A stretch of DNA of 64,000 nt from positions 124,001 to 188,000 of the forward strand of contig JAUPFP010000068.1 in the NCBI GenBank assembly GCA_036925085.1, given 5' to 3'. This DNA comes from Brachycybe producta. Taxonomy: Eukaryota > Arthropoda > Diplopoda > Playtdesmida > Andrognathidae. A program made the position numbers and the translations under genes. Shown piece after piece: positions 11,480 to 64,000 of this stretch. A model generated the notes under the pieces. It had not been told where the DNA came from. It was given only the letters and a program-made list of their open reading frames with translations, and searched no databases. Each line of letters opens with the position of its first letter. The first letter of the stretch is position 1.

Positions 11480-12609
11480 CCTTTTTTATATTAAAAAGTG
11501 CGTAATTTGAGGTTGCAGTCATGAGTTATTATTTAAGACTGTAACACTGTACAGCATTATTAATTTACAACTCAATGCGGCAATGTACGCATACCTCTGA
11601 ATCCTTATTTACAGCGCAGTACTTACAATGTTACATGTAGCATTCCTCACAAACACGTTTTTGCAAATTATAGCATAATACCATAACGGTAAAATAACAG
11701 TAGAAACCGTTTAAGGTGGTTTACTGCTCGTATGAACAGCTGATTTTCGAACCTTTGATTAATTATCCTGTCATTCAGAACAACAAAATTACTAGAAACT
11801 AGAAAGTGTTTTAGAATCTAGAAGGGTAGCTGAATCACTGAATAGTATTTTCATGTTATCTTTCAAAATAAACTATTTATAAACAAAAATGAAAAAAAAA
11901 ATATCCTCTGCTTAAAAGTTGGGTCGTTTGCAGACTCATAATATAAAAGGCTTATTTTAATTTTAAGCTTGGTTTAAAGTGTAAAACGTCTCAAACTCTG
12001 GCTTTCAGAAACAAAACTAAAACAAACTTGAAAGTGTTTTAGAAACTAAAAGTATAGATCAATCTCTTAAATTAAAAGTTTATTTTGAAAGATTTCCATA
12101 TGAAAATACTATTAATGATTGAGTTACCTTTCTAGTTTCTAATACACTTTCAATTTCGCCTTATATCTCGTTTCCACTACAAAAATTAACTACAGTTATA
12201 TAACCAAGGTTATAGTTAACTGCAGACAAGTTAGATGTGTTACTGTGGTTAAATGATTTTGTTTGGTTTCACTTCCTGTTAAACAGTAGTGTATTTTGTG
12301 AAATTTTCACTATTCAAAAATTTAGTGTTCTCACTCAGTGGCGTAGCTAGGCTTGGTTGTGCCCCACCGCCACTTAAAACTTTGCTCCCCCTTACCTTCA
12401 TCTCCACATAGCCCTCATACTGGGTGGGGGTACTATTTTGATGAACGGCGGAACAGGTGTGAACAACAGTACAGTTACAATTAGTACTCTGCTAGCAGCC
12501 AAATAGGCCTATGGCAGAGGGGCATAAAAGTCCATATTTCAGCATTAAGCATTGTCAAGCACATATACATGCACATATAAAAAACAAAATGAATATACAA
12601 ATGTCAATC

Positions 12610-15394: not shown

Positions 15395-16010
15395 TATATA
15401 AAAAAGCTGATTTTCAAACTCTTGATTTTAAAATTAAAAGAAACTAGAAAATGTTTTAGAAACTAGAAGGGTAGCTTAATCATTTAAGGTGAATATTTCA
15501 TGTTGATATCCTTCAAAATAAATGCTTATGCAAAATAATTGCAAAATAATTGCTTAAAGTTAGAGGTGGCAACGGGTAGAACCGAACCGTTTCTATTCGG
15601 TTCAAAACCGGTTTAATCGGTTTGCGGTTCGCGATTTTTTGGAAACCGGTTCTGATCAGTTCGTAGATCTTGACGAACCGGTTGCCAATATGCGTTAGCA
15701 GAGTTGCGCAGCACATTAGTTAGACGTGGCGAAGGGTGTGGAACCGAACCAAATCTATTCGGAACCAGTTCGACCTATACTGGCGAACCGGTTGTATCAG
15801 TTCCAGTAATTGGCGAACCAGTTCTACCGGTTCCGAACTGCTGATTTCTCTCCTTAACTAACTCAAACTATCTTAAAAAAGTTTATTTTGTAAGATACCA
15901 ACATGGAAAATATGTTGAAGTGATTGAGCTACTCTTCTAGTTTCTAAAACACATTCTAGTTTCTCTTCATTTTGAACCTGAAAAACAAAATAATCAGAAT
16001 ATAATAGTAC
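15395..16010. mobile_element. Foldback family A copy interrupted by a GAACCGGTTC-rich element
   Basis: Family A left half at 15395-15550 and right half at about 15870-16010. The insert (about 15556-15860) starts TTAGAGGTGGCAACGGG, a hAT-like end, and is filled with GAACCGGTTC words; a second such start (TTAGACGTGGCGAAGGG) lies at 15719. It lies in the intron upstream of the last exon of the HBM-motif gene. Confidence 0.65.
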
Positions 16011-21477: not shown

Positions 21478-21760
21478 CATAAGATGGTTTATGAACAGCT
21501 GATTTTCGAACAGTAATTATTCTGTCTTTCAGAAGAACAAAATTAAGCGAAACTAGAAGAGAAGCTCAATCACTTTAAATATATTTTCATGTTGGTATCT
21601 TTCAAAATAAACTTTTTATAGAGAAAAGTTAAAAAATAAATCAGCTTAAAGTTGGGTCACCATGAAAACATCCTTTAAGTGATTGAGGTACCCTTCTAGT
21701 CTCTAAAACACATTCAAGTTTCTCTTCATTTTGCACCTGAAACACAGAATAATCAAGAGA
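21478..21760. mobile_element. Foldback family A copy
   Basis: Starts AAGATGGTTTATGAACAGC and ends ACAGAATAATCAAGAGATCG; both arms carry the diagnostic GAAACTAGAAG / CCTTCTAGT words. Confidence 0.75.
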
Positions 21761-32200: not shown

Positions 32201-32207
32201 TTACGCA

Positions 32208-32400
32208 ACAGACAATTAGAAAACGGGATGAACAGAAGTTGGCTCTACCCTTTTTATGACGAAACCAACTTCTAATTGGTTGGTTATGTAGTCTGACGTC
32301 ACATGCTCTGCCCTTTTCAACGTCGAACCAATTAGAAGTTGCCGTTCGTCATAAAAAGAGCGGAGTCAACTTCTGTTCATCCCGTTTTCTAATTGCCGGT
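32208..32400. mobile_element. MITE family C, copy 2
   Basis: ACAGACAATTAG / CTAATTGCCGGT ends, flanked by a perfect 9-bp duplication GGTTACGCA (32199-32207 and 32401-32409). The centre reads CTGACGTCACATGC. Confidence 0.9.
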
Positions 32401-32442
32401 GGTTACGCATGCATATACATGTAATTATGGAGGGTTTAAGTG

Positions 32443-32860: not shown

Positions 32861-33468
32861 CAGAGTGCTGGTGAGCTCAATTGAGCTTTCTAGCCTCGTA
32901 TTCTTAATTGCTAACGTCAAAGGTCCCATCCCTCCCCCATATACGATGGGATCAGGTCACAGTTCAGATCCGTTCCTTTTTTTTTTAGCTATTGGCAAAC
33001 GGATCAGATCTGACTGATCTGATTACGTTTTTTCGCCTATTTTGTTTCAGTTATCAACCTAGTCCTTGTTGAGAACTGTACAAGTAAAGCGAATAAGCGT
33101 GTTCTCTCCCTCTCAGATCTGATGGACCTGGACTGCTTGTTGTCAGTCCGGATCCGTCACTCCAGATTTCATCATGAATCGGTGCATTTAAAATACGGTT
33201 CATTTGACAGTCCAGTTATTATCATCATCTTGTGTAAAATTAATGAACTTGCAGCACTTATTATGGTTTCAAGAAATAACGGTTCCGGTTCATATATGTG
33301 TATAATTTGCGTGTGACGTCATGCCAAGACATATACTGGAAAATTGATGACGATCATAAAAGGGCGGAGCCAATTCTGAGGCTGTCTACAGATACCTGTC
33401 CTATCATTTGCCTATTTGAGAGTTTGCCAATATATTGAGTTTTGTAGCATTAAATGGATTGATTTACA

Positions 33469-33672
33469 AAGGCAGTTAGAAATCGGTCAGAACTTCAGTT
33501 GGCTCCGCCCTTGTTATGACGACCGGCAACTTCTAATTGGTTTGTTGTATGGTTCGACGTTGAAAAGGGCGGAGCATGTGACGTCAGACTACATAACCAA
33601 CCAATTAGAAGTTGCCAGTCGTCATATCAAGGGCGGAGCCAACAGAAGTTTTGACCTATTTCTAACTGCCTG
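33469..33672. mobile_element. MITE family C, copy in SPECC1L upstream intron
   Basis: GGCAGTTAGAAATCGG / CTAACTGCCTGT ends with GGGCGGAGC and TGACGTCAG inside. A right-arm fragment of the same family lies at about 33880-33930. The flanking duplication is not clear. Confidence 0.8.
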
Positions 33673-33885
33673 TGTCTGTGTGAGACCAGCCTCGATTAAC
33701 GATTAATTCTGGCTGATCGGTCGAGTTAAGATTGAAGAGCAAGAAGAAGAAAAATGGATTGAATTAAAAACCGCCACACATGATCAATTTTTGGATTGAC
33801 AAGCCGGAATTGATCGTCTGAGGCCAGCATTGTTGTATAATGGATTGGCTCACGAGCCACACGTAAAGAAAGAACACCTTTTACA
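33672..33885. repeat. Dispersed repeat shared in inverse orientation with 49680-49875
   Basis: GAGACCAGCCTCGATTAACG, then GATCAATTTTTGGATTGACA and AATGGATTGGCTC, match the reverse complement of the ZSWIM7 intron 2 sequence over about 200 bp. Confidence 0.8.
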
Positions 33886-34740: not shown

Positions 34741-34906
34741 TTTGGTAAGCATCACTTAATATATAATAAATAATCAATATTTATTTCTATTGATTACTCT
34801 TATAATAAGTGATGCTTATCAGTTTAATAAGCTTTTTTTTTTGCCAAACTAATGGGCCCGCGCTGTCTGACTAGTGCCTAAACGCGAGGGCTAAACAGAA
34901 CAGAAA

Positions 34907-35121
34907 ACAGGCAATTGGAAATCGGGACAAACAGAAATTGGCTCCGCCCTTTTTATGACGACCGGCAACTTCTAAATTGGTTGGTTATGTAGTCTGACGT
35001 CACATGCTTTCCGCCCTTTTCAACGTCGAACCACACACACACAACAAACTAATTAGAAGTTGCCGGTCGTCATAAAAAGGGCGGAGCTAACTGAAGTTCA
35101 TCCCGTTTTCTAATTGCCTGT
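34907..35121. mobile_element. MITE family C, copy with perfect target duplication
   Basis: ACAGGCAATTGGAAATCGG / CTAATTGCCTGT, flanked by GAACAGAAA on both sides (34898-34906 and 35122-35130). Confidence 0.92.
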
Positions 35122-35592
35122 GAACAGAAACCAAACGAGAGCTAACTCCCGGAAGAAGTTTAGCTCTTGTTTTTTTGTTTTTTTAAATAATGATGTTTTT
35201 AGCCGTTTTGATCATTCATACGAAACACATTTTTCCAAAACGAAGAAAGTTTTAAGAGCCGCCGCCGCCGTAATTAGTGTGGGAGTTGGTTGAATTTTGT
35301 TTCTCTCTTCAGAAAAACAGAAAGAAAAACAAAAGTTGACCAAATAAACAAGGGGAGGAGGAGGGGGGAAGTGTGTGTGTGTGTGTGGGGGGGGGTGTTT
35401 TCTGTTTCTCTCTTTTGCTTTAAATCTTTGAAGTTGGAAATTTCTTTTAATTAGTTTATTCGAAAGGAAATTATTTATTTTTCATATTATTATTTATTAT
35501 GGGATGGTTTCTCTCTTCGTTTCCCTCAAGTGAGTGTGTGGGTGGAATAATAATTATTTAAAAAAAAGATGAAATAAGACAAAATTAAAGGG

Positions 35593-36054: not shown

Positions 36055-36830
36055 CTTTAAAGCGGCGATCACACTGGCTATTTTTCTCGCAAGACGTTAC
36101 GGTAAACCTGTCAGGTATGCCTGCTCAGGCCTTTCGCCGAGGCAGGTCGACCAGACGACAGTAGTGGATCGTGCACACGCTCCGATAAAACTGAACCCCA
36201 TTCTTAATTCAGTCTGCTGACCATCGTCTGCGACGACGATGACGGCTCCTGAACTGACGCCAGACTCGTCGCTACACGCTCCGATCAACCTACACAGGCG
36301 TGCTTGTGCAGGTTTACCGGAACGTGTTAGGGCAGCCTTAAGACGGTGTTGCAAGAAACCACTTTAAAGCACAGGCATTTAGAAATCGGGAAGAACATAA
36401 GTTGGCTCCGCCCTTTTTATGACGACCGGCAACTTCTAATTGGTTGGTTATGTAGTCTGACGTCACATGCTCCGCCCTTTTCAACGTCGAACCACAGAAC
36501 ACACCAATTAGAAGTTGTCGGTCGTCATAAAAAGGGCGGAGCCAACTTATGTTCTTCCCGATTTCTAAATGCCTGTGCTTTAAAGCAGCGTTCACACTGG
36601 CAATATTTAAAGCAAGATTCACTGTAATCTAGCATTGAATTGATTGCAATTACCAATGTGATTAATACTCTTGCAAGACTTTAAAAGTGGTTTATTGCAC
36701 ATCCGTCTTACAGAATACGTTTGATCTTCGTTTTTTTTTTTTTTTTTTGCAAGAAACTTAAGATTCAAAGCAATATTTGACTTATTTCTTGCAAGAAAAA
36801 GTCAGTTTGAACACCGTTTAAAATCTTATA
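36055..36830. mobile_element. Foldback sequences carrying a nested family C MITE
   Basis: AAAGCGGCGATCACACTGGC (36060) and AAAGCAGCGTTCACACTGGC (36583) are similar starts. Inverted ends lie near 36340 and 36790-36820 (TCTTGCAAGAAAAAGTCAG and GAACACCGTTTAAA). CTCGCAAG/CTTGCAAG words recur. The MITE at 36371-36576 sits between them. Confidence 0.6.
36371..36576. mobile_element. MITE family C, copy near 36.4 kb
   Basis: ACAGGCATTTAGAAATCGGG / CTAAATGCCTGT, flanked by ACTTTAAAGC and GCTTTAAAGC (9 of 10 bases identical). Its two long arms explain the paired ORFs seen on both strands here. Confidence 0.9.
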
Positions 36831-40100: not shown

Positions 40101-43100
40101 ACGAAGGCATCGAGGCTAATCGCATCCGAATGCTTCTCGATACAGAAAGAGCTAAGGTATACGATTGATCGGGACCACACAAAAATCGATTCTATGATCA
40201 ATCGAATCAGAATCGAACATCTCCGTAGTAAGCAATTCTTTGTTCGACGGTAATTTTAACGTCGTTTTCTCACCCGGCTAAAGGTTTTAGAGCTACAACA
40301 GACGAGACTGGTTCAAGACAAGTCCGAATTGGATGAGCTTTTGGACGAAGCTCGGAAAGAGAAGGATCGCTTAGAAGGTCGAACGACCGAACTTCAGGAA
40401 CAATTGGCTTTGAGCCAGTGCGAAGCGACGCGTCTCAAAGAGCAACTGAGCGTTCAACAGGAGGATGCGATGGTGGCAAAAAATAACGCCAAGAAACAGA
40501 TGAGCGACCTACAGTACAAACTACAGCAGGTGACGGCATCGAAAGACGAGATGCACACTCAGGTCATCGACCTACGAGAAGTGGTTCACGAGTTGGAACG
40601 AAAGTGTCAGAGGCACTTGGAAGACAAGAGGGAACTGAGGGTGACGATCGGTGAACTGCAGAAACAGTTGAACGAATCGACGGGAAGAGCCGAAATGGTT
40701 CAGAGGCAGCTGGAGGAACATTGTCAGAAACACGAGAAAGAGGTGAAAAAAAAAGAGATCTCGGAAGAAACTTCCATTTCATCAGCAAGCCATTTGCAAA
40801 ATATACAAATGAAAAAGAAAGAAATCGAGTAGAATCTCTGGTTATTTTGTGTGCTTGTGAAAGTTTTAAGAAACTAGAAAAAGTAAATTGAATCATTTAC
40901 AATGTTTAAAGGCGCGTTTAGACCAAAGCTCTGCGAGCCGTTCTAAAATGGAAACAGACCTCGGTTCAGACGAGAGCTCGCGAACAGTTCTAGAGCTATT
41001 TCGAACAGGTACAAAGTTCGCTCTCGAGGCAGTACATCAAAGGGTTCGTTATCGAACATCTGCCGAACAGAAAACCCAGTCTAGACTTGAGTGAGCTCGT
41101 CTCGCCAGTTGATAATTATTACAGCTTCATCGTTTGATGACATCTTTAATAAAACACGGCCGCTTGACGTGCTAACAAACAACATCTCGAGAGCTGTCCG
41201 TCATGCGAACGTGCTACTTTTTCTAATATTTCCTGAGCGGTTTGTGAACGTCTGAATTTTGTCTAAACGCGCCTTTTATGAGCAACTGATTGGAAAACTT
41301 TGGTTATTCGTTATTTCAGAACATCAACACAAAAGATAAATGGAAAAATGTGTTAGAAAGTAGAAAGGTAGCTGAATCAATTGTATTTTCATGTTGATAT
41401 CTTTCAAAATAAACTTTTTATAGACAAAACTTAAAAAAATATTGTCTATTTAAAGTGAAGTCAGTTTTAAACTGGCATAAAAAAGTTTATTTTGAAATAT
41501 ATATCAAACATGAAAATACAATTGATTCAGCTACCTTTCTACTTTCTAAAACACTTTCAAGTTTGTCTTCATCTTGTTTATCTGAAAAGACAGAATAAAC
41601 AGTGTTTACACTTTAAAACCAGCTCAAGAAGAAAAGTGTTTCAGAAACTAGAAGAGTAAATAAATCACTTCAGTTGATTTTCATATCATATTAATATATT
41701 TTAAAATAAACTTTTTTCAGTTTGGACCAAAACTTGTGAAGAATCTACCGAAATAGATATTTCACCTCTTGGTAGATTTTTCACAAGAAACAAAAAAAGC
41801 TTATTTTAAACGATATAAACATGAAAATCTTACGTGGTTCAGAGTTACTCTTCTAGTTTCTAAAACACTTTCAATTTCTTTAATGGCTGCATTGGAAATG
41901 CAGAATAATTAAAAGGCTGCTAAGTCCCATTGTTCTCATTCTTTTGCACATTTTGTAAAAAATAGTAACTTAAAAAACAAATAAACTGAATAGTATTTTA
42001 GAAACTAGAAGAGTAAACAAATCGCTTCAAGGGATTTTTACGGTGTTATCTTTTAAAGTTAACTTTTTACGTCGATTTTGAAATTCTACCTTTTTATTTT
42101 TCACTTCAAATTTGGACCAAAACTTGTCAACAACAAAAAAAAAGATTTCTAGTTTCTAAGACACTTTCAAGTGTTTCTTACGATTCTTTTCGAAACGCAG
42201 GCAGAATAAAGAGAATTCTAGTTACTTGTTTAGATTTTCAAATAAACTCGTGCCAAACTGTGCTTCGTGTGTTACAGACCGAAGAATGGAAACAGTTTCA
42301 GAACGATCTCCTGATGACCGTCCGGGTCGCAAACGACTTCAAGACAGAAGCTCAGCAGGACGTCGAGAAGCTTGTCGTCGAGGTTCACCGCTTATCGGAC
42401 CACATTCAGAGCCTAGAAGCGGAAAACGAGAGACTGAAGGCGATGAAGACGACAACGTCGCCTACGTTTCACCGTAAACCGTTACAAAGCGGTCCCACAA
42501 CGTTCTCCGACTGTAACGTTCTCATGAGCAGCGTAGAACAACAGATCGTGTCGTTACGTCAGGGAAGACCACCGCGTCCCGACACGAGACAATCCGTCAA
42601 GAGTCTCATCGAGTCCATCGAGAACGCTTCTTCCCAACAGACCAAAGAATCGATCTCACCGACTGGAACCGTCTCACCCACGGGTTCGTTCTCGCTGCAA
42701 ATTGGAACGAAAATGCTGATGGTCACTTATTTGCTTTGATGGTTTTTTTTAGTAGTTCCTACGTCTCCCAACCGAACGTCTTCGTCTGGAAACAGTGGTC
42801 AGTCTCCGGAAAAGCCTATTTTGGCTCCGATTTTGAAACGACACGATGCTGATCTGTACATTAAAGTGAGAGGCTACTTCTCAACGTTGATTTTATTAGC
42901 ACATTTCTAAGCAAATTGCATCGCTTAAAACGATTGCCGGATGAGGAGGCTACAAACTTTTAAGATTACTTTCTTTCCGTTTAGCCTCCAACCTGTCCCG
43001 TCTCGATCGACGGATCCTCGTCCATCTTGAGAGATCAGAAGAACCAAGCCAATTCGAGTGCAATGCAGTCGTCGTCCGTGCGCCTTTCAAACGGAAACAA

Positions 43101-45177
43101 GACTTCCTCTGCAACGGACCGGAACAACGTTTTGTCTCCTCCTTCTTCTTGCCGAGGAGAGTCGGACGTGCCTAATTTGAAACCGGCCGCCGTCGTATCA
43201 CCGACTCCGGTCTCCATTCTTACGAATAAGGTGGATTCGGTGAGGAGGACCAGCTACGGGTTAGTTAGCTCGGTTTTAAAATAACGATCGTCATTCTAAC
43301 TCTCAATCGTTATTGGGATCTTCCGTGTGTCTAGCGATTCGAACAATGACAAAAAGGATCCTTTAGCGATGTTGGCGAGAGGCGGTGGATCGAGACGAAA
43401 CGCTCTCTTGAAGTGGTGCCAGAATAAGACGATCGGCTACAGTGGAATCGACATCACCAACTTCAGCAGCAGTTGGAACGACGGTCTCGCTTTCTGTGCG
43501 CTGCTGCACACGTATTTGCCGGATCTTATTCCGTACGAGACGTTGGACAACAAGGACAAAGTATTAACGACTTCTATTCCTTAACGTCCACTTAAATTCG
43601 AATCTTTCCGGTGTAAAATGAAGAGAAACTTGAATGTGTTTTTAGAAACTAGAAGGATCCCGTCAATCGCTTAAGAGCACATTTTCATGTCGATATCTTT
43701 CAAAATAAACTTTTTATGCGAGTTTGACAGACGAATTTTTTTTTTACATTTTTGTCTATAAAAAGTTTATTTTGAAAAGTATCAACGTGAAAATACTATT
43801 AAGTGATCTAGTTTCTAAAACACTTTCTAGTTTCTCTTCATTTTGCTCGTTAAGAGTTTGAAAATCATCTTAAGTGATTTATTTACACTTCTAGTTTTTT
43901 AAAATACTTTAGATTTTTCTTAAGATGGTTTTTGAACAGCTGGTTTATTCTGTCTTTCAGGAGCAAAAATTAAGAAAAACTAGAAAGTGTTTTAGAAACT
44001 AGAAGGGTAGCTCCAATCACTTAAGGGTATTTTCATGCTGATATCTTTCAAAATAAACTTTTTATCTCAGTTTGAAAATGACCCAACTTTAAACTGAAGA
44101 CATTTTTTTTTAATTTGAAAATACCCCTTAAGTGATCGAGCTGCTACCCTTCTAGTTTCTAAAACACATTTTAGTTTAGTAGTTTGTCTTCATTTTTACA
44201 CCATTAAAAAATAATCAGAATTTGAGAGACATTTAGACTTTAAAACCACCTTAAGTGATTGAGCTGCCCTTCTAGTTTCTAAAACACATTCAAGTTTATT
44301 TCCGATATATATCGAGTTTGACATGTAATCTTTAAAATATCCGATATTTTAAATTTTATATAGAAATATCGATTCATTCAGAAATTTTGGCGACCCTTCT
44401 GCTTATAAAACGCCTTAAGCCTCGTTTTCATGGCGATAGTTTTCATTCATGAGAGTAGCTGTCAACAAAGTTGCGATAGTTCACTCTCACGATAGCAACT
44501 GTCTACATGTCGTGAAGTAATCGTGATAGTTGTCTGTCACATGTGACAGTGTGACGTCTAACTTCACAGATATCATTGAGTCAACAACAGTGTTGCCTCT
44601 CTCTCTCCCTCCACAAGCCAAATTTCCCTACAAAGTGGATATTTTTCCCTACAAGCTCAATTACTATTGCGACAGTACTATCAACCAACTAAGTCAAACG
44701 AGATAGTTGTGATAGTACTATTGCGACAGTGTGATAGTGACTATCACGTGGTATTCACAATGATAGTTCTCGCGATAGTTGCTGCTCTCATGACAGCAAC
44801 TATCGTGACAACAACTAGCATCGTGAAAACGAGGCTTACAAATAATGCAAGAGTCTCGGTTACGCCTGCGCGCTCTCTCACCCGTGTAAACGTCTTTTCT
44901 GCTTTTAAATCTCTTTCTTTTCGTATTTTTTCAGCGTCGTAACTTCACCATGGCTTTTCACGCGGCCGAATCCGTTGGAATTCCAACTCTATTGGTCAGA
45001 CTTTGTCGTTTTTGAACTTTTGTTTCGTTAAAAGAGACTAAAACCGCACAGACAATCGCGTTAACCTTATTATATATTCATTCTTAGAACACGAGCGACA
45101 TGATCTCCATGGAAAGACCCGACTGGCAATCCATCATGGCTTACGTCACATCCATCTACAAGCATTTTGAGACGTGA
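37141..45177 (+). CDS. SPECC1L: Cytospin-A / SPECC1L, calponin-homology coiled-coil protein (1066 aa)
   Basis: Fourteen coding exons: 37141-37406, 37491-37670, 37761-37959, 39009-39206, 39281-39480, 39553-39814, 39890-40156, 40284-40742, 42278-42683, 42753-42865, 42985-43259, 43335-43560, 44935-44994, 45088-45177. They sum to 3201 bases in one frame; human SPECC1L has 1117 residues. Starts MKK like human. A Thr/Pro/Arg-rich basic N-terminus is followed by long coiled coils with the signature [20 protein letters not shown] then [13 protein letters not shown] Ser/Pro-rich spacer precedes the C-terminal calponin-homology domain (about 957-1064; [40 protein letters not shown]). The vertebrate protein links actin and microtubules in adhesion and cytokinesis. 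Donors GTTCGA (after exon 5) and GTTCGT (after exon 9) are unusual. Introns 8 and 12 are packed with transposons. Confidence 0.97.
38085..38220. repeat. GGAACCC..GTTCAAGTTGA palindromic repeat in SPECC1L intron 3
   Basis: GGAACCCGTGTTCGGAGAG then GTTCAAGTTGAAATTGAAG, with a degenerate inverse copy. It belongs to the family tandemly arrayed at 56165-56880. Confidence 0.6.
40911..41273. mobile_element. Foldback with GGCGCGTTTAGAC ends inside a family A copy
   Basis: GGCGCGTTTAGACCAAAGC on the left; GTCTAAACGCGCC on the right. Family A sequence (AAGAAACTAGAAAAAGTA at 40870, then GAGCAACTGATTGGAAAAC at 41280) brackets it. The interior repeats GAGCTC/CTCGAG/GAACAG words. Confidence 0.7.
41275..42215. 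mobile_element. Three foldback family A copies in SPECC1L intron 8
   Basis: Copies at about 41275-41640, 41625-41905 and 41975-42215, each with a GAAACTAGAAG left arm and a CTAGTTTCTAA right arm. Together with the foldback at 40911-41273 they make up nearly all of the intron. Confidence 0.75.
43610..44300. mobile_element. Family A copies in SPECC1L intron 12
   Basis: Copies at about 43610-43870 and 43925-44265, plus a partial right arm to 44300. The second begins TCTTAAGATGG and ends ACCACCTTAAGTG, so both borders abut TTAA. Confidence 0.75.
44415..44838. mobile_element. Foldback filled with GATAGTT/AACTATC words
   Basis: Ends TTAAGCCTCGTTTTCA and TGAAAACGAGGCTTA. Inside, GATAGTT or its complement occurs more than a dozen times in both orientations, with CGATAG and GACAGT variants. 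Confidence 0.85.
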
Positions 45178-45723: not shown

Positions 45724-48700
45724 TCATATTGTTTTCAAAATGTCCGTCATCTGCTGGTCAGTTACAAGTGATTCTTCGCTTTTGTTCATCGCTTCCGAGA
45801 GACGGATCGCCAATAAATGTTTACACTGAATAGACGAGAAACGGTCGTTAACGGAGGAGCGCTACGACTTTTTTGAGTTTTCAAACACATTTTGTTGTTA
45901 CCATTGTTTGTTCGCCTCTTCGTAAAACTTTAACGATTGTTGTTTCGGAAAGAGAGAGAGAAAAAAAAATAGTGGAATTTGAAAGATTAGGACTTAAGGT
46001 GGCTTTATAGAAATTTATTTTGCTTTTGTCTCCTCCAGACGGCGCCACTGCGGTGGCTAACACTATGCTCCATAGACGTTTTTTTTTATTAAAATTTGGG
46101 TGTAAAAATGTCAAGAAAACGGTTTTTTTTTTAGGAACAACATTATGAAAAAATTCAAATTGTTTTCAAAACTAGAATGGTAAAAGATTATGTTAGAAGT
46201 TATTTCGCGGCAATATCTTAAAAAATAAACAATTTTATAGTTCAGTTTGAAAATGACTCGTTTTTTTTTTAGGTTTTTCCATCGACATTTCATGAAAAAA
46301 TATTTTCGTCTTTTTTTCAAACTTGTCATAAAAAGTTTATTTTGAAAGATATCATCATCGAAAATACTTTTAGTATTATCACCAACTATTCCAGTTTCTA
46401 AAACACTTTGTATTTTTTTTCGTAATGTTTCTCCTGAAAAAACGTTCGCTTGAAAAATATAAATTATCTCAAAACCGCGAGTTTGGGGCGAAGAGACCTC
46501 CTCCTCTATAGAACACAATTGCCACTGCAGTGGCGCCATCTGGAAGGACAAAAACAAAATAAATATCTATAAAATCACCTTCAGTGGTGCACAGTTTTGA
46601 AACCAACTTTAAACATGTTTTATAACCAGCTGATATTTGAGTTATGGTTATTCAGCATTTCAAAAGAGTAACCACTAATGAGAAATTTGAAAGTGTGTTA
46701 AAAACTAGAAGGGTAGCTTAATGACTTAATAGTAGGATTGGGCCATTCGAATCCTGCAAATCTTGAAAAATATTCGAGATTCGAAAACTCGAATCTTCGC
46801 GTTTTTTTCGTCTTTCGAATCTTTCGAATTCTAACCTTAAAAAAAAACTTAAAAACTTTGTTAAAATTAGTTTTAACTCCATTGACGTCCAATAGAAGCG
46901 TTCACTAACAAAAAAACCGGCGATTGTTGCAATTTCGGTGGTTATCCGGGTCACCAATATCATCACCTTGTGGCAACCCTGGGTGCCACTTGTTTTTTTA
47001 TTATTAGTAATTTAATATTACTATTTCCTTTATTTGTATTTTCTTAATGAATAATATAGGATTCTTATATGAAGGATTCGAGAGATTCGAGAAACTTTTA
47101 GGATTCGGATTCGAGAAACTTTTAGGATTCGGATTCGAGAAACTTTTAGGATTCGGATTCGAGAAGCTTTTAGGATTCGGATTCGAGAACCTTTTAGGAT
47201 TCGGATTCGAGAAACTTTTAGGATTCGGATTCGAGAAACTTTTAGGATTCGGATTCGAGAAGCTTTTAGGATTCGGATTCGAGAACCTTTTAGGATTCGG
47301 ATTCGAGAACCTTTTAGGATTCGGATTCGAGAAACTTTTAGGATTCGGATTCGAGAAACTTTTAGGATTCGGATTCGAGAAACTTTTAGGATTCGGATTC
47401 GAGAAACTTTTAGGATTCGGATTCGAGAAACTTTTAGGGTTCGGATTCGAGAAACTTTTAGGGTTCGGATTCGAGAAACTTTTAGGATTCGGATTCGAGA
47501 AACTTTTAGGATTCGGATTCGAGAAACGTTTAGGATTCGGATTCGAGAACCTTTTAGGATTCGGATTCGAGAAACTTTTAGGATTCGGATTCGAGAAACT
47601 TTTAGAATTCGGATTCGAGAAACTTTTAGGATTCGGATTCGAGAAACTTTTAGGATTCGGATTCGAGAAACTTTTAGGATTCGGATTCGGATTCGAGAAA
47701 CTTTTAGGATTCGGATTCGAGAAACTTTTAGGATTCGGATTCGAGAAACTTTTAGGATTCGGATTCGAGAAGCTTTTAGGATTCGGATTCGAGAACCTTT
47801 TAGGATTCGGATTCGAGAAACTTTTAGGATTCGGATTCGAGAAACTTTTAGGATTCGGATTCGAGAAGCTTTTAGGATTCGGATTCGAGAACCTTTTAGG
47901 ATTCGGATTCGAGAAACTTTTAGGATTCGGATTCGAGAAACTTTTAGGATTCGGATTCGAGAAACTTTTAGGATTCGGATTCGAGAAACTTTTAGGATTC
48001 GGATTCGAGAAACTTTTAGGGTTCGGATTCGAGAAACTTTTAGGGTTCGGATTCGAGAAACTTTTAGGATTCGGATTCGAGAAACTTTTAGGATTCGGAT
48101 TCGAGAAACGTTTAGGATTCGGATTCGAGAACCTTTTAGGATTCGGATTCGAGAAACTTTTAGGATTCGGATTCGAGAAACTTTTAGAATTCGGATTCGA
48201 GAAACTTTTAGGATTCGGATTCGAGAAACTTTTAGGATTCGGATTCGAGAAACTTTTAGGATTCGGATTCGGATTCGAGAAACTTTTAGGATTCGGATTC
48301 GAGAAACTTTTAGGATTCGGATTCGAGAAACTTTTAGGATTCGGATTCGGATTCGAGAAACTTTTAGGATTCGGATTCGAGAAACTTTTAGGATTCGGAT
48401 TCGAGAACCTTTTAGGATTCGGATTCGAGAAACTTTTAGGATTCGGATTCGGATTCGAGAAACTTTTAGGATTCGGATTCGAGAAACTTTTAGGATTCGG
48501 ATTCGAGAAACTTTTAGGATTCGGATTCGAGAAACTTTTAGGGTTCGGATTCGAGAAACTTTTAGGGTTCGGATTCGAGAAACTTTTAGGATTCGGATTC
48601 GAGAAACTTTTAGGATTCGGATTCGAGAAACGTTTAGGATTCGGATTCGAGAACCTTTTAGGATTCGGATTCGAGAAACTTTTAGGATTCGGATTCGAGA

Positions 48701-50498
48701 AACTTTTAGAATTCGGATTCGAGAAACTTTTAGGATTCGGATTCGAGAAGCTTTTAGGATTCGGATTCGAGAACCTTTTAGGATTCGGATTCGAGAAACT
48801 TTTAGGATTCGGATTCGAGAAACTTTTAGGATTCGGATTCGAGAAGCTTTTAGGATTCGGATTCGAGAACCTTTTAGGATTCGGATTCGAGAAACTTTTA
48901 GGATTCGGATTCGGATTCGAGAAACTTTTAGGATTCGGATTCGAGAAACTTTTAGGATTCGGATTCGAGAAACTTTTAGGATTCGGATTCGAGAAACTTT
49001 TAGGATTCGGATTCGAGAAACTTTTAGGATTCGGATTCGAGAAACGTTTAGGATTCGGATTCGAGAACCTTTTAGGATTCGGATTCGAGAAACTTTTAGG
49101 ATTCGGATTCGAGAAACTTTTAGAATTCGGATTCGAGAAACTTTTAGGATTCGGATTCGAGAAACTTTTAGGATTCGGATTCGAGAAAATTTAGGATTCG
49201 TCCCACCTCTAGTTAATAGTATTTTTCGTGTTGGTATCTTTCAAAATAAACTTTTTTTTTTACAGACAAAAAAAATTAAAAGATTATCTTCTGTTCAAAG
49301 TTGGATCATTTTCAAAGTACCGTAAAAAAGTTTATTTTGAAAAATACCCTTAAAGTGATTGAGCTACCCTTCTAGTTTTTAAGACACTTTCAATTCATTG
49401 TTGGTGTTGCTCCTGAAAAGTGGAATAAAGTTGAAAATTTAAAAGGGTTTTTGCGAGATTAACCTGAGTAATGAAACGAGCGACACTCGCAGTGTTTTCC
49501 CATTCCCAGGCAAGTGTACGTGTTCTTCGTTGATCCCGTGACGCGAAACACAATCCGTCCACTCGGCGATCGAGTACGGGTTACTCCGTGACGGTCAACG
49601 ATGTCCAGTGCCAGTATAAGGGTTGATTGGAATACACTATGCAGCCTTTTAGCATTCATTGAAATAATAAAAGGTGTTCTTTTCTTTACGTGCGGCTCGC
49701 AAGCCAATCCATAATATATTACAATGCTGGCCTCAAACGATCAATTCCGGCTTGTCAATCCAAAAATTGATCATGTGTAGCGGATTTTAATTCAATCCAT
49801 TTTTTTCTTTCTTCTTGCGCTTCAATTTTAACTCGAACGATCAGCCAGAATTAATCGTTAATCGAGGTTGGTCTCACACAGACCACTTTGTGGCGCCACA
49901 AAAAGTGGTCGTCTTTATCAGACTACTCATCACATAGGTGTTCCTATGCAACCGGTAACAAAGAGTGGTCGACCTCTGCCACAGGTAGCAACCACCGGAT
50001 TTTTTCTTCCAGGCGGTGATCACTTGTTACTCTCAATGGCGCGACAGTGGCAAAAAGTGGTCGAGCTTTACCACAGGTGGCGACCACTGGTCTTTTTTTT
50101 TATCTTGGTAGTGATCAAAGTCATACCAGTGGTCCGCACCGACGACAGGCCATAGTTTTAAATGGCTGTCTTGACACAAATCATACGATCGAGCCACTTT
50201 GTGGCGACACTGAGTGATCTTCGTAAAGCAGGTCAAAGTTCGGCTACAAAAGAGAGAGAGGAGGGTGGTTTGGGATGGTAACACATACGTACGCGTTCAA
50301 AATATTCTCATTGACTGAAATGTAAAACACGTGACAATTACTAAACAGAAATGATTGACAGCTCGGTAGCTCCTCCCCCCCCCCCCTTGAACACGCTTAA
50401 TTATGAAACACGTGGTTATAAAAGCGAAACTTACGTTTCTTTTCTGCTTCGTAAATTCGTCTGACGTCCTCAAACAATTCTTCTTCGACGGACTCCAT
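45724..50498 (-). CDS. ZSWIM7: ZSWIM7 (SWS1), SWIM-type zinc finger recombination factor (131 aa)
   Basis: Five exons in transcript order: 50498-50435, 50314-50293, 49645-49464, 45927-45902, 45825-45724; 396 bases in one frame (human 140 aa). The product aligns through ALDIVDRHGVTRTRSPSGR, NTYTCLGMGKHCECRSFHYS, VLRRGEQTM, CKHLLAIRLSEAMNK and TDQQMTDIL. The SWIM motif C-x-C...C-x-H is intact (C81, C83, C99, H101). The family partner is SWSAP1; the complex promotes Rad51 loading in homologous recombination, notably in meiosis. Exons 2 and 4 are microexons of 22 and 26 bases. Intron 3 is 3.5 kb and contains a hAT-like element with a 2.1-kb satellite. The acceptor lies directly before the ATG, so the 5' UTR is probably spliced. 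The gene is convergent with SPECC1L; stop codons are about 550 bases apart. Confidence 0.93.
46010..46560. mobile_element. Family A relative with GGCGCCACTGC ends, in ZSWIM7 intron 3
   Basis: Ends TTTTGTCTCCTCCAGACGG.GCCACTGC and GCAGTGGCGCCATCTGG, with family A arms (AAAACTAGAATGG, CCAGTTTCTAAAAC) inside. The left border lies near CTTAAGGTGG. Confidence 0.65.
46733..49211. mobile_element. hAT-like non-autonomous element with internal satellite
   Basis: Begins TAGGATTGGGCCATTCGAAT and ends GATTCGTCCCACCTCTA; the reverse of the right end, TAGAGGTGGGACGAATCC, pairs imperfectly with the left. Flanks CTTAATAG (46725-46732) and GTTAATAG (49212-49219) are an 8-bp duplication with one mismatch, as expected for hAT. 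A short relative lies at 61746-62147, where the internal array is only about two units. Confidence 0.85.
47077..49194. repeat. 24-bp satellite, about 88 units
   Basis: The unit is TTAGGATTCGGATTCG followed by AGAAACTT, with occasional extra GGATTC dimers. Single-base variants (AAG, AAC, CGT, GAATTC, GGGTTC) recur in a fixed order, giving a higher-order repeat: the GAGAAACG variant is at 47521, 48103, 48625 and 49039 (spacings 582, 522, 414). The unit is a multiple of three, which creates a spurious 715-codon frame. Confidence 0.97.
49680..50165. repeat. Dispersed repeat and AGTGGTCG-rich segment in ZSWIM7 intron 2
   Basis: 49680-49875 is the inverse of 33672-33885. From 49875 to 50165, AGTGGTC/GACCACT recurs about eight times with CACAGGT and GCGACC(A) words. 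Confidence 0.7.
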
Positions 50499-50911
50499 CT
50501 GAAATCACTGACGGATGGCTCGGATTCGCCGAAGACTGCAAACATATACTCGGAAATAACTCGCACATTCACGGCATTTACAACGAAAAAAAACCACCCC
50601 GCTATTGACACAATGCACATGTAACTGTCACCAAATACATTACGTAATTACTGCAGTTGCTATTGCGCAACTTCCGGAGGGGGGGTGGGCAATAGTGACG
50701 TCACACGTATAAATTGAGAAGATGAAAAGGAGGAGGAGCTGTCATTTTATTACGTCGCTAGATCGTCTTTGTGATTGGCTGTCTAGCAAAATCTAAAGTC
50801 GGATTCATATTGTGACGTAAATGCCACAGATTTCTTTCTAAAAATGTTCTGTGATTTGTTGTCTCGCTGATGGCCGCAGTTTGCAACTTTTGGCGCTAAA
50901 TTTAAATGAAA
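50499..50911. other. ZSWIM7 promoter side, no gene seen
   Basis: Contains a G-rich run and AGTGACGTCACACG near 50694-50707. No TATA box is evident. Confidence 0.4.
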
Positions 50912-51712
50912 TAAAGAGGCTACATCGCAAAATTACTTCGAAAAATCTCCGCAAGGAGCGCTAGCATCGTTTTTCTATTGAGTCCATAGACCCCATATGT
51001 TAAAGAAAGAAAGGTTATTTTTTAAAATACACAGTTGCGGCGGCAATATGTTTATTTTTCATATTTAAAGTTGTCAAATTTTGATGGTTCAAAGTGCAAT
51101 GTGCACATATATGCTGATCTAGTGATAGAGCGTTGCAGTTATATTTTTTAAAAACTATTTTAAAATGGCGAATTTTTAACTCTTTATGTTAAACTCCATT
51201 GAGTACGCGCTTATAAGCAAAACAAATCCATTAAAATGTTCGTAAAATACGTAAAAAATAATTTTAAAAAACCAGAAAAAAATCACCACATCCTCCAATG
51301 TGTTGGCTTCACTGTGGTTTAATTGTGGTTTTTTTAAAAATTATTTTTACATATTTTGACGAGCATTTTAATAGATGTTTTTTCTTATTTGGGCTTACTC
51401 AATGGAATTTAACATATGAGTTAGACATTCGCCATTTTGAAATACTTTTTAAAAAATAGGAGCACACTTGCCAATTTTTTGTGATTATATCACTAAATGA
51501 ACATATATTTAAAATGCATATTACACTTTGAAAAATTAAAATCGGACAACTTTAAATATGAAAAATAAACATTTTGCCGCCGCGACTGTGTGTGTATTTT
51601 AAAAATTAACGTTTTTTTCTTTAACATTGGGTCTACGGGCTCAATAGAAAAAACGATGCTAGCGCTCTTTGCAGAAATTTTTGGAATTAATTTTGCGATG
51701 TAGCCTCTTATT
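50912..51712. mobile_element. Long foldback, about 800 bp
   Basis: AGAGGCTACATCGCAAAATTA / TAATTTTGCGATGTAGCCTC, then GCGCTAGCATCGTTTTT / AAAAACGATGCTAGCGCTC and AAATATGAAAAATAAAC-type arms. The match runs about 380 bp into the centre, where CACTGTGGTTTAATTGTGG lies. No reading frame explains it. Confidence 0.85.
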
Positions 51713-52208
51713 GGCACTGCTAACTTTTTTTAAAAATAATTTGATTTTTATTTCAATTAAACAAATAACTAATAATTTTAAAAATTATCAAAATATAATT
51801 AAATAAATAAATTTGTCATATAAAAAAGATCCAAAGTTTTTTTTTAAATGAATTTTAATTTAGACTGAAGTATCCATTTGCAAAATATGCAAATTAGCCA
51901 CAAAAAAAAAGAATAAATTCTATTTCTATTTTAATTTGCATTTCTGAAGCTATATTAAGAAACTTCAAGTGTTTTAATGGCCTTTTGACGTGAAGTAACT
52001 CCTAAATAATATTCTAAAAATAAATCCAAATAAAGTCCTATTTCAATAAGAAAACTTGACACTCCAAATTCAACTTGTACGCTCTAAGCAGGGTTCCAAC
52101 ATTGGGCAACAACAGGGTTCCAACAAACTACAATCATTTTTTAATAATAAAAAAAGCTGGTTAGAGCCTATATGTCCGGATACTATGAGTTGTTAACTAG
52201 AAAGTTCT
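51713..52208. other. AT-rich spacer, no gene seen
   Basis: Holds a degenerate copy of the GGGTTCCAAC / TTCAACTTG repeat (about 52060-52140) and a GCTGGTTAGAGCC word like that at 11416. Confidence 0.4.
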
Positions 52209-52415
52209 ACATGCATTTAGAAATCGGGACGAACTTCAGTTGGCTCCGCCCTTTTTATGACGACCGGCAACTTCTAATTGGTTGGTTATGTAGGCTGACG
52301 TCACATGTTCCGCCCCTTTTCAACGTCGAACCACACAACAAACCAATTAGAAGTTGCCGGTCGTCATAGAAAGGGCGGAGCCAACTGAAGTTCGTCCCGA
52401 TTTCTAAATGCCTGT
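52209..52415. mobile_element. MITE family C, copy near 52.3 kb
   Basis: ACATGCATTTAGAAATCGGG / CTAAATGCCTGT, flanked by GAAAGTTCT and CAAAGTTCT (8 of 9). Confidence 0.9.
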
Positions 52416-52550
52416 CAAAGTTCTAGCCTTAGAAACGAGATTGTTACTTCACAATTGGCCCGACTTGAGCCACAGATTGAGAAACATATTTGCATCAAAA
52501 TTATTCGAACCCTATGGTAATGACTAATGAGACTTCTGGTTCAATCAGAA

Positions 52551-52758
52551 ACAGGTAGTTAGAAATAGGTGAAAACTTCATTTGGCTCCGCCCTTGTTAT
52601 GACGACTGGCAACTTCTAATTGGCTGGTTATGTAGTCTAACGTTGAAAAGGGCGGAGCATGTGACGTCAGACTATACATAACCAACCAATTAGAAGTTGC
52701 CAGTCGTCATAACAAAGGCGGAGCCAACTGAAGTTTTCACCTAATTCTAACTGCCTGT
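52551..52758. mobile_element. MITE family C, copy near 52.65 kb
   Basis: ACAGGTAGTTAGAAATAGG / CTAACTGCCTGT, flanked by a perfect 9-bp duplication CAATCAGAA (52542-52550 and 52759-52767). Confidence 0.92.
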
Positions 52759-53141
52759 CAATCAGAATGTTTTAGTTGAAATTTCTTTTCTTGAATTTGG
52801 ACCTAAATCTGGACCCATATGTGATTCATATATATATATGAATTAATATTCAATCCCACATATTGTTCTCTTAAACCTTGATGCTTATTGTTGACTAATA
52901 AAACTAAAAGCCATATATTCTGCTTCTTAAGTGGATTAACTACTCTTAATAACAAGGACAAAATGAGGTCGTGTTACGACCTTTTATCCTAGTTTCGTAA
53001 AAAAAAAAAACTCTTCACGATATTTCCTTTTTTTCCCCCTCCATCACTTTGTGCAACACGGATTCTATTTCTCATCACTCGATTCACTTGTCAGATTTAA
53101 GCTAAAAGAAGCTGGTTGCATATTTTTTTTTTATCTTACAG

Positions 53142-53169: not shown

Positions 53170-56100
53170 ATGTCCAGCCAATTTGACAGTTTGGAACGAT
53201 GTCTCGAAGATAACATTCCCGAAGAAGAACTACGAGAAGTTAAACGGATTCTCTACGGAAAAGAATTACAGTAAAAATAATGAGAGAAAGACGAATTTTA
53301 TAGAATATATTTTTTTTGTTGGCCACACGTTCAAAATCCATATAGACTATAGCTCGGCCACGTATGATAAAAACCAGTTATGTCAGTCATTAATATACCA
53401 CCTTTTTTTTTTTTAAAATGATTTTGTTTAAAGGAAACTAGAAATTCCAGTTGCGGCTCAGTCGATCGCCGACGAAAAAGACTTCGAGATTCAAGGATAT
53501 AGTTTTACGGCCGAACACGAAACGTTGCGGCCACCTCGAATCGTACGAGTCGGCCTCGTTCAGAATAAGATTGTGTTGCCGACCACCGATTGTCTCAATG
53601 CTCAGAGATCGGCTTTACATTATCGTATTGCGGACATCATCTCTGCTGCGGCTGCGGCCAACGTCAACATCTTGTGTCTACAGGAGACGTGGCGTGAGTT
53701 CCGATTTGGTCTCCGGTTAAAGGCTATATAGAGAGCTGAGAGCTCTCTCTGAAGGCTCCTTTCGAGCCAAACACGGCTTTGTATTAATTGAAGCACGTAA
53801 TTTAACCAAAATCCACACAAATAATGAGTATTTTTGATTTTTTTTCATGTTAGAACCCTGTTGAGAGGGTTCAAATTGAATTTCAAGTGAATTTGGGCTT
53901 ATTTTCAATTATTACTTTCGAATGTATACAAGTTAGGCTACTATTAAAAAATAACGCAAATAAGTTACTTTATATACAGTTACAAAGTGCAAAACCAGTC
54001 ACTTTTGAAAAGTAACTGTTCTATGTTTTTTAATAGTTACTTTTACTTTTAGATGAACACATTTTATAAATTTTTATAAAGAACTGTTTTCATAATTAAA
54101 GTAAAAGTAACTGTGTTAAAAACCATATAACAGTTACTTTTTTATACAGTTACTTTCATATGAACTAATTTTCTAAAGAACTGTTTTCATAAAGTAAAAG
54201 TAACTGTATTTAAAACACAGAACAGTTACTTTTTAATAGAGTTACTTTTACTTTTAGATGAACAACTTTTATAAAGAACTGTTTTCATAAAGCAAAAGTA
54301 ACTCTGTTAAAAACCACATAACAGTTACTTTTTAATACAGTTACTTTAAGATGAACAAATTTTTATAAAGAACTGTTTTCATAAAGTAAAAGTAACTGTA
54401 TTAAAAACAAAGATCAGTTATTTTTTTATACAGTTACTTTTATATGAACTAATTTTCTAAAGAACTGTTTTCATAAAGTAAAAGTAACTGTATTAAAAAC
54501 ACAGAACAGTTACTTTTTAATACAGTTACTTTTACTTTTAGATGCACAAATTTTATAAAGTAAAGTTTTCATAAAGTAACTTTTAATATCGCAATCAAAA
54601 CTTGTCGAAAATTTTGTTGCAGAAAAAATTACGGGAATCTTCAGTTAACCTTTCAAAAGTAACTGCACTATGTCTTTTTTGCAGTTACTTTTAATGTTAA
54701 TCATTAGCTAGTTTTATATAAAATTTCTTCCTGAAAGTAACTTTTAATATCAAAAGTTTTGTCACCAAAGTAATTGCACAAATTTCTTCAGTTAATTTTC
54801 ATAAGTAACTGTGGCTTGCGTTACAGTTACTTTAACACTATAAACCACGATTAAATTAAAAAAAAAAATTTTTTCTATAAACTAACTTTTTATGTCAAAA
54901 GTTTTGTTGGAGAAGTAATTGCCCCAAAATGCAGTTACTTTTCAAAAGTAACTGTGTTTTATAAGTTACAATTACTCTAAAGTTAAACCCTAGGTAACTT
55001 TTTAAAAGAAATTTCTTCCATAAAGTTACTTTTAACATTACAACAAAACTAGGTTTTGTACGATTCTTCAGTTAGTTTTCAAAAGTAACTGTGGCGTACG
55101 TTACAGTTACTTTAAAGCTATATATTAAATTTTCAAAGAAATTTCTTCCATAAAGTAACTAACTAACTAACTTTTAATATTACAACAAAACTTGTGATAA
55201 ATTTTGTTGCAAGAGCAATTTTACGAATCTTCAGTTAACTATTATTTTTTAAAAAGTAACTGTAGCTTATATTACAGTTACTTAAAGCTAAACCATGATT
55301 GTCACCTTTGACGCCAGTTAGTAATTATTTCGACCAAATGCGACCGTGAATTCAAACAAAAGTGGAGAGAAAAAAACTGAAAAAACCCTCAACAATTTCT
55401 GTATTTTTTTTCTTCCAGACATGCCGTTTGCTTTCTGTACTCGAGAAAAGTTGCCATGGTGTCAGTTTGCCGAAACAATCAAAGAAGGGCCATCGGTCCG
55501 CTTCTGTCAAGAGGTTACGACATCTTCCGATCGAATCCTCCTCTTTTTTTTTAAAAAAAAAAAAGAATGCTTCAATGATAGTTTTTTTTGCTTTTTCGAG
55601 TGTAGTTAGCCAAACATTACAACATGGTCATCATTTCTCCGATACTTGAGCGTGACGAGACTCACGGTGATGTCCTCTGGAACACGGCAGGTTAGATAAA
55701 AAAAAAACAAGATCGAGAGAAATAATACGAAATTTTCTTCTTCTTCGTAAAAACAAATAGTTGTCATTTCCAACTCTGGTAAGATCATGGGAATCAGCCG
55801 CAAGAATCACATTCCGAGAGTCGGAGACTTCAACGAGGTTTTGAAATCCTTCCTTCGATATTTTGTGTTCCGTGAATTCTTTTTACGATAAAGTTCCTCT
55901 AATATCGAATTATTGCCGTTCTTTTTTTTTTCTTCCTCAGTCCACTTATTACAACGAAGGAAACACTGGACACCGTGTCTTTCAAACACAATGGGGTAAA
56001 AAAGGCCGTATAGTTACGAGAAAACAACTTCGAGAGTTTGTTTTTTTGTGAATTTTGCTCAATTTCGAGATGGAAAAAAAAGACTTCAAAACTCGGCACT

Positions 56101-61745: not shown

Positions 61746-62147
61746 TTGGGATGGGCCATTCGAATCTTCGAATCCTCGAATCCCGCGCGAATCTTGAAAA
61801 ATATTCGAGATTCGAAAACTGGAATCTTCGCGCTTTTTTTTCGTCTTTCGAATCTTTCGAATCCTAACCTTTAAAAAAATCTGCTAAAAACTTTGATAAA
61901 ATTAGTTTTAACTCCATTGACGTCCAATAGAAGCGTTCACTAACAAAAAAAAACCCGGCCATTGTTGCAACCCCGGATCTTACCAATATTACCACACTTG
62001 TTTTTTTATTATTAATAATTTAATATTTAATATTATTTCATTTATTTGTATTTTTCTTAATGAATAATATAGGATTCTTATATTGAAGGATTCGAGAATC
62101 TTTTAGGATTCGGATTCGAGAAAAGTTAGGATTCGTCCCCACCTCTA
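61746..62147. mobile_element. Short relative of the satellite-bearing hAT-like element
   Basis: GGGATGGGCCATTCGAATC on the left, AGGATTCGTCCCCACCTCTA on the right. It shares TCCATTGACGTCCAATAGAA and TTAATGAATAATATAGGATT with 46733-49211 but has only about two GGATTCGGATTCGAG units. Flanking duplication not clear. Confidence 0.85.
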
Positions 62148-63519: not shown

Positions 63520-63956
63520 TAAATCTTTTGAAAAGTTTTAACAATAATTTTTGGTAATTATATCGATAAAAACTTTGTTTGGCATCAAAGAAATAAAATT
63601 AAAACACAGTTGAAACCGTATTTCAAAGAATTTTTATGCTGTTTAAAAAAAAAATATATATTTCGTATAAAACGGTTTCCACTGTTATTTTACTGTATTT
63701 AAGTAGATAATGTTTAATGTGTGACAAGAATCACAAACAAAACGAAAAATCGACAAATTCAAAAGTATATTATTGTTTATAGCACAGTTGCCGCACTCTT
63801 TAATTTGTAACTTATGACGTCATAAGGGTTTCGTCTCATAGAAACGAGATTTTAAGCAAAACTTCTCAACCGTTTGATAATAATCTCGGGTACTTTTGTT
63901 ATTATTATTACCTACTTTTTTCTAATCAGAGACCAAATAACGCAAGTCAAACTTTT
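63520..63956. other. AT-rich spacer, no gene seen
   Basis: Pieces of inverted AAAACTTTG / AACGGTTTCCACTG words suggest another decayed foldback (about 63560-63690); a TGACGTCA site lies near 63815. Confidence 0.4.
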
Positions 63957-64000
63957 ACAGGCAATTAGAAATCGGGACAAACAGAAGTTGGCTCCGCCCT
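63957..64000. mobile_element. MITE family C, left end cut by the window edge
   Basis: ACAGGCAATTAGAAATCGGG then AGTTGGCTCCGCCCT, identical to the family start. Confidence 0.9.

What the first reader, a model, noticed from the sequence alone, without database searches (positions are those of the whole stretch)
46733..49211. hAT-like element whose own terminal word has grown into a 2.1-kb satellite
The element has hAT-style ends and an 8-bp target duplication. Its interior is about 88 copies of a 24-bp unit built from GGATTC/TTCGAG, words also present in its termini. The sibling at 61746-62147 has the same flanking sequence with about two units, so expansion followed element formation. Ordered variants (GAGAAACG at 47521, 48103, 48625, 49039) show later block duplications of 414-582 bp. 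The array sits in an intron of a 131-aa recombination protein.
Basis: partly seen in the sequence, partly recalled or inferred. Interest (0 to 1): 0.85.

Follow-up and report, generated by a model that had tools for sequence, protein, structure and literature searches.

The report
Transposon end repeats expanded into minisatellite
A small piece of jumping DNA with no recognisable gene of its own, sitting between exons of what looks like an animal gene, has a short motif near one end repeated about 86 times in a row, an example of a known route by which jumping DNA gives rise to tandem repeats.

Summary
A 2,479-bp insertion (46733-49211) has a non-repeat left part (about 340 bp) and an array of 86 full 24/30-bp units. 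A 402-bp sibling (61746-62147) has the same left part and two units. The insertion is bracketed by an 8-bp duplication (7 of 8; 8 of 8 if shifted by one base), and unoccupied paralogues of the repeat it landed in show the empty site. Words of the unit cluster at both element ends, mostly in inverted orientation, and are absent from the middle, as in hAT subterminal repeats. Ordered variants show block duplications (582, 522, 414 bp). The 24-bp units hold no singleton substitution, while the bodies of the two copies differ at 19 of 321 sites, so the present array is much younger than their split. Most likely it is a non-autonomous hAT-type MITE whose right subterminal motif was amplified by slippage and unequal exchange. 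With two copies, 'short first, then long' and growth after insertion are plausible but not shown; the inverted ends are weak. Arrays growing from transposon-end repeats are known (Tetris, Galileo), so this is a new member of a known kind. The species is unknown; the non-animal collections searched gave no relative.

The parts
46733..49211 (+). Long copy of the non-autonomous hAT-type element (2,479 bp)
   Evidence: Empty-site paralogues and 8-bp duplication; sibling alignment
46725..46732 (+). Left copy of the target duplication, CTTAATAG (alternative register 46726-46733, TTAATAGT)
49212..49219 (+). Right copy of the target duplication, GTTAATAG (alternative register 49213-49220, TTAATAGT)
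46733..46840 (+). Left end with clustered words (3 CGAATC, 1 GATTCG)
   Evidence: outside the elements at most 2 such words in any 130 bp
46841..47070 (+). Middle of the element, free of GATTCG/CGAATC; holds a 55-bp stretch (46862-46916) identical to the sibling (61897-61951)
47084..49200 (+). Tandem array, 24-bp unit TTCGAGAAACTTTTAGGATTCGGA, 86 full units of seven types
47086..48273 (+). Two successive copies of a higher-order block: 47086-47691 (25 units) and 47692-48273 (24 units), which differ by one 24-bp unit
   Evidence: Unit string; coordinates
61746..62147 (+). Short sibling copy (402 bp) with two units at its right end
46600..49430 (.). Older, partly palindromic interspersed repeat (family with many copies in the window) into which the element inserted; limits approximate, set by eye
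   Evidence: Self-comparison (46687-46727 inverted against 49393-49353) and empty-site paralogues
45724..50498 (-). SWIM-domain gene, ZSWIM7/SWS1-like (name recalled): exon-like pieces 50498-50435 (then GTAAGT), about 49627-49464 (then GTTAAT; its start is unsure) and 45825-45724 (preceded by TTCAG, ends in TGA). The element lies between the last two. The model is probably incomplete
   Evidence: Translation; Pfam SWIM E = 0.0068; PDB SWIM-type E = 0.0048

Best explanation
This is a non-autonomous hAT-type transposon (MITE) that inserted into an older interspersed repeat, between exons of a gene. Both of its ends carry clustered copies of a short word (mostly CGAATC on the left, its complement GATTCG on the right), probably subterminal binding sites for a transposase encoded elsewhere. 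In its ancestor the right-end motif was present as about two 24-bp units, as in the sibling. In this copy it grew to 86 units by replication slippage or repair-template slippage, followed by unequal exchange or gene conversion that copied blocks of units (copies lie 17 to 25 units apart). Shown: the insertion, the shared body, the clustering of words at the ends, the block duplications and the youth of the present array. Inferred: hAT membership, transposase binding by the words, the two-unit ancestor and so the direction short to long, and the molecular route of growth.
For: Empty site: 35 BLAST alignments of the joined flanks, at 30 distinct places in the window, run through the junction without the insert. 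Of 9 sites that match the 15-bp target with two or fewer mismatches, one is the element's own right flank and one (41985) lies in another context; the other seven sit in the same repeat context, one of them exact (43790, minus strand). Words: the sibling has 7 GATTCG/CGAATC in its left 125 bp, 0 in its middle 200 bp and 4 in its right 77 bp, against 38 in the 61,119 bp outside the elements, never more than 2 per 130 bp there. Left words are mostly CGAATC (6 of 7 in the sibling, 3 of 4 in the long copy), the sibling's right words all GATTCG (4 of 4). Word number also varies at the left end: the sibling has two extra stretches of 8 and 10 bp, each with a CGAATC (alignment). Blocks: a six-unit string occurs 4 times against a maximum of 1 in 20,000 shuffles; an 18-unit perfect repeat. 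Youth: in the 81 24-bp units all 32 departures from the consensus are five variants present 4 to 12 times each, no singleton in 1,944 bp, and the five 30-bp units are identical. The bodies of the two copies differ at 19 of 321 sites; at half that rate about 62 private changes would be expected in 2,094 bp. The edge unit of the array and the sibling's last unit resemble each other (TTCGAGAAAATTTAGGATTCGTCC against TTCGAGAAAAGTTAGGATTCGTCC), so growth or loss took place between conserved edge units.
Against: The terminal inverted repeats are weak, and by the gapped test not distinct from chance in the short copy (1,445 of 5,000). The target duplication has one mismatch in the register that gives symmetric ends. 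The sibling has no clear target duplication. No transposase or third copy is available. The edge units could equally be what is left after a contraction in the sibling. The 5.9% divergence may include time before either insertion, so the array's youth does not prove growth in place.
Confidence: 0.7

Rival explanations
1. The ancestor of the family already carried a long array (captured or grown once), and short copies such as the sibling arose by contraction.
For: Two copies only; contraction between edge units would leave the same pattern. [quoted passage not shown]
Against: The unit is built from words present at both ends of the short copy, so no capture is needed. The 24-bp units hold no singleton substitution, so at least the present form of the array is young.
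Confidence: 0.18
2. It is a DNA transposon of another superfamily, or a foldback-related element like Tetris, that also makes an 8-bp duplication.
For: Weak terminal symmetry. Tetris, whose paper text does not mention hAT, has 8-9 bp duplications and repeats grown inside its ends (PMC4079207, passages).
Against: The register CTTAATAG fits the hAT pattern nTnnnnAn, and the right end TAGAGGTGGG resembles hAT ends (both recalled, from no call). The inverted similarity of the ends is short, unlike the TIRs of up to 1,735 bp of Tetris.
Confidence: 0.17
3. The array length or order is an assembly artefact.
For: Tandem arrays are prone to mis-assembly; no reads are available here.
Against: Partial blocks at three different spacings (582, 522, 414 bp) and a one-unit difference between the first two blocks are not a simple copy of one stretch. 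An error in unit number remains possible.
Confidence: 0.06

Closest known systems
Tetris of Drosophila virilis (PMC4079207; abstract and passages seen)
   Same: Tandem repeats of variable number inside transposon ends, which the authors suggest began as a duplication of part of the terminal repeat; 8-9 bp target duplications in complete copies; two allelic copies with three and four units; arrays of up to 66 copies; the authors suggest more transposase-binding sites as an early advantage.
   Different: Tetris units are about 220 bp inside long terminal inverted repeats. Here the unit is 24 bp, the array is at one end only, and the inverted ends are short and weak.
Galileo of Drosophila (as told in PMC4079207, passages)
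   Same: Tandem repeats within the ends that hold additional transposase-binding sites.
   Different: Another superfamily (P; abstract start of PMC4168063 in the listing); foldback-like.
miDNA4 MITE of Xenopus (Scalvenzi and Pollet 2014, as told in the reviews PMC12628747 and PMC9659126; passages; the original was not seen)
   Same: A MITE whose internal repeat exists as one monomer or as an array of variable number.
   Different: Tc1/mariner MITE; its repeat is suggested to have been captured rather than grown from an end motif.
Hermes and Kat1 hAT subterminal repeats (PMC10368747; PMC4763223; passages)
   Same: Short words clustered toward the two ends, largely with opposite orientation; bound by the transposase BED domain at the left end of Hermes, thought to stimulate Kat1.
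   Different: No tandem array in the passages seen; their motifs (AAGT/AAGC; TGAATT) differ from the word here; the Hermes right-end repeats were not seen bound.

Membership tests
hAT superfamily, non-autonomous (MITE) | 8-bp target site duplication | tested here: met
   Long copy: 7 of 8, or 8 of 8 in a register shifted by one base; unoccupied paralogues carry the site once. Short copy: not clear (5 of 8).
hAT superfamily, non-autonomous (MITE) | Short terminal inverted repeats | tested here: inconclusive
   Outer 12 bases: 8 matches in the long copy (36 of 5,000 random pairs as good), 7 in the short (143 of 5,000); gapped 26-bp comparison 159 and 1,445 of 5,000.
hAT superfamily, non-autonomous (MITE) | Subterminal repeats clustered at both ends (usual, not strictly defining) | tested here: met
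hAT superfamily, non-autonomous (MITE) | Mobilised by a hAT transposase; autonomous relative in the genome | not testable with these tools
   No genome is held for the window. The window's own ORFs were not scanned for a transposase.
Transposon-borne tandem repeat (Tetris/miDNA4 kind) | Unit number varies between copies of one element | tested here: met
   86 full units against 2; only two copies.
Transposon-borne tandem repeat (Tetris/miDNA4 kind) | Array shaped by exchange: homogeneous units, block duplications | tested here: met
Satellite DNA in the strict sense | Long arrays, abundant in the genome, also outside the element | not testable with these tools
   One 2.1-kb array in the window; apart from the sibling's two units no other array of the unit is listed in it. 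The genome is not held.

The most novel reading that the evidence does not exclude
The 24-bp unit is a transposase-binding subterminal site, and the array of 86 units acts in trans as a sink that titrates the family's transposase, or in cis makes the copy hyperactive, so that selection on transposition rather than drift drove the growth. A more remote form: TTCnnGAA, a two-pentamer heat-shock-factor-like site (pattern recalled), occurs 87 times in the long copy, which could make the array a stress-factor sink like human satellite III (recalled).
Probability: 0.1. Interest if true: 0.6.

Novelty: new member of a known kind. Interest (0 to 1): 0.35.

Why it matters
It shows one element family in two states within 15.4 kb: two units and 86 units of a motif from its own end. 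That makes it a tidy natural case for how transposon ends seed tandem repeats, and for testing whether extra transposase-binding sites or plain slippage drives the first growth. The principle is already in print for Tetris and Galileo, and a related one for miDNA4. In the passages and table seen here I saw no hAT MITE with an array grown from a subterminal word, but I saw parts of five papers and ran nine searches of one open-access library, so I do not claim that none is in print.

Tried and rejected
Searches for relatives failed. No whole genome is held for the window. Exact patterns found nothing in viral contigs (4 scans: the unit, the element body and two interspersed repeats) or in genome contigs (2 scans: the element body and one interspersed repeat). 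Blastn of the sibling found nothing in phages or plasmids. The species is therefore unnamed; that it is an animal is my inference from gene content.

Coding: the array is open in four listed frames, two on each strand (727, 750, 728 and 736 aa), as expected because 24 and 30 are multiples of three. Pfam finds nothing up to E = 1 in the two frames scanned (727 and 728 aa). I reject coding as the explanation.

DNA hairpin: four units fold less well than the mean of their shuffles on either strand (z = 1.11 and 1.95). Rejected as a driver.

More copies in the window: nhmmer and blastn with the two bodies found no third copy. The weak nhmmer rows lie in the array or the elements, or have E of 0.22 or more.

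Heat-shock element: TTCnnGAA is in the unit, but no three-pentamer site occurs in either copy, and TTCnnGAA occurs 23 times elsewhere in the window. Kept only as a remote reading.

A search of papers for the unit's letters gave 186 papers; the 20 listed look unrelated by title. A search for repair-induced array change gave a listing that I did not read further.

It changed the empty-site wording (35 alignments at 30 places), the block end (48273), the identical stretch (55 bp) and the splice-site notes.
Full report
What is there. The stretch 47084-49200 is a tandem array with a 24-bp period. Cutting it at TTCGAGA gives 88 starts, of which 86 are full units: 49 of the commonest type, five further 24-bp types present 12, 6, 6, 4 and 4 times, and a 30-bp type with one extra GGATTC present 5 times. 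To its left lies about 340 bp of non-repeat sequence, which a second place in the window, 61746-62147, shares at 302 of 321 ungapped positions, with 31 and 30 gapped positions besides. The longest identical run is 55 bp. That sibling ends in two units. No third copy was found in the window.

It is an insertion. The flanks continue an interspersed, partly palindromic repeat that is common in the window. Joining the two flanks and dropping one copy of the 8-bp duplication gives a query that aligns through the junction 35 times (of 46 alignments), at 30 distinct places. Nine sites match the 15-bp target with two or fewer mismatches. One is the element's own right flank and one (41985) lies in another context. 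The other seven sit in the same repeat context, and the one at 43790 (minus strand) is exact. The duplication is CTTAATAG against GTTAATAG, or exactly TTAATAGT in a register shifted by one base. The first register gives ends that begin TAG and finish CTA and fits the hAT target pattern as I recall it; the second needs no mutation. Both copies have a G after CCTCTA, which leaves the register open. The sibling shows no clear duplication.

The ends. The outer 12 bases match in inverted orientation at 8 positions in the long copy and 7 in the short (36 and 143 of 5,000 random pairs do as well). In a gapped comparison of 26 bp, 159 and 1,445 of 5,000 random pairs do as well. This is suggestive at best, and in the short copy the gapped test shows nothing. 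The stronger sign is the arrangement of words. GATTCG or its complement occurs 38 times in the 61,119 bp outside the two elements, never more than twice in 130 bp. It occurs 7 times in the sibling's left 125 bp and 4 times in its right 77 bp, and not in its middle 200 bp. The long copy has 4 in its left 108 bp and none in its middle 230 bp. Left words are mostly CGAATC (6 of 7 and 3 of 4), the sibling's right words all GATTCG (4 of 4). Hermes has subterminal repeats that are mostly antisense on the left end and sense on the right. They are bound by the BED domain at the left end, but the right-end repeats were not seen bound (PMC10368747, passages). Kat1 has hexamer repeats whose polarity differs between the ends (PMC4763223, passages). 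The number of words varies at the left end too: the sibling has extra stretches of 8 and 10 bp, each with a CGAATC.

History of the array. The unit order is far from random. One six-unit string occurs four times against at most once in 20,000 shuffles, and the longest repeated string is 18 units against a maximum of 16 in 1,000 shuffles. The first 49 units are two copies of one block, 25 and 24 units long (47086-47691 and 47692-48273), that differ by a single unit. Later partial copies give the spacings 522 and 414 bp. Among 1,944 bp of 24-bp units there are 32 departures from the consensus, all from five variants present four to twelve times, and no singleton. The five 30-bp units are identical. 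The bodies of the two copies differ by 5.9%. If half of this arose on the long copy's lineage, about 62 private changes would be expected in 2,094 bp of array without homogenisation. So the array in its present form is much younger than the split of the two copies. This does not tell whether the growth came before or after the insertion, because the 5.9% may include divergence of source copies.

Setting. On the minus strand, exon-like pieces at 50498-50435 (followed by GTAAGT), about 49627-49464 (followed by GTTAAT) and 45825-45724 (preceded by TTCAG, ending in a stop) encode a protein that resembles ZSWIM7/SWS1 (recalled). Joined with unverified junctions they match Pfam SWIM at E = 0.0068, below the curated cut-off, and a PDB SWIM-type protein at E = 0.0048. 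The element lies between the last two pieces. The length of 131 aa was not verified, and the model is probably incomplete. To the left lies a gene with a calponin-homology domain (Pfam CH, E = 4.6e-14). A gene to the right that I would call beta-ureidopropionase by recall got no convincing Pfam match with the piece submitted.

Reading. I take it as a non-autonomous hAT-type element whose right subterminal motif grew by slippage and unequal exchange. The route from a few end repeats to a long array, with extra transposase-binding sites as a possible early advantage, is what the authors of Tetris suggest, with Galileo as their comparison (PMC4079207, passages). Reviews list further MITE-borne arrays, among them miDNA4 in Xenopus (PMC12628747 and PMC9659126, passages). 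The present case is a new member of that kind, with a small unit and a hAT-like insertion. That no hAT MITE of this sort is in print I cannot claim: I ran nine searches of one open-access library.

Limits. The collections searched are viral, bacterial and archaeal, phage or plasmid, so the lack of relatives says nothing about other animals. The window's own ORFs were not scanned for a hAT transposase. Two copies cannot show direction of change.

Noticed in passing
50910-51712: A large imperfect palindrome (inverted self-match, 79% over 842 aligned columns), probably another foldback-like or MITE element.
   Followed up: no
7272-7481, 32207-32401, 33467-33689, 34901-35129, 36367-36577, 52204-52422, 52536-52767: A roughly 207-bp palindromic family with seven copies in the window plus a part at its right edge (63950-64000); two copies lie about 135 bp apart near 52.5 kb.
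   Followed up: no
for example 2347-2630, 8036-8746, 11794-12163, 15439-15965, 21550-21724, 24345-24564, 25773-25990, 41328-42068, 43623-44297: A second interspersed, partly palindromic family (AAACTAGAAGGGTAGCT...), frequent in the window, which is the landing site of the element.
   Followed up: partly
33674-33883 and 49668-49883: A 216-column stretch, 92% identical in inverted orientation; at 33.7 kb it lies directly between a copy of the 207-bp palindrome and a part of another, so one repeat may have inserted into another.
   Followed up: no
54072-54579: Another tandem array, 92-bp unit, 5.3 copies.
   Followed up: no
47084-49200: CpG observed/expected is 2.56 in the array against 1.27 in window 1-46000; none of the five substitution variants removes a CpG and one (GAGAAACG) makes one.
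   Followed up: no
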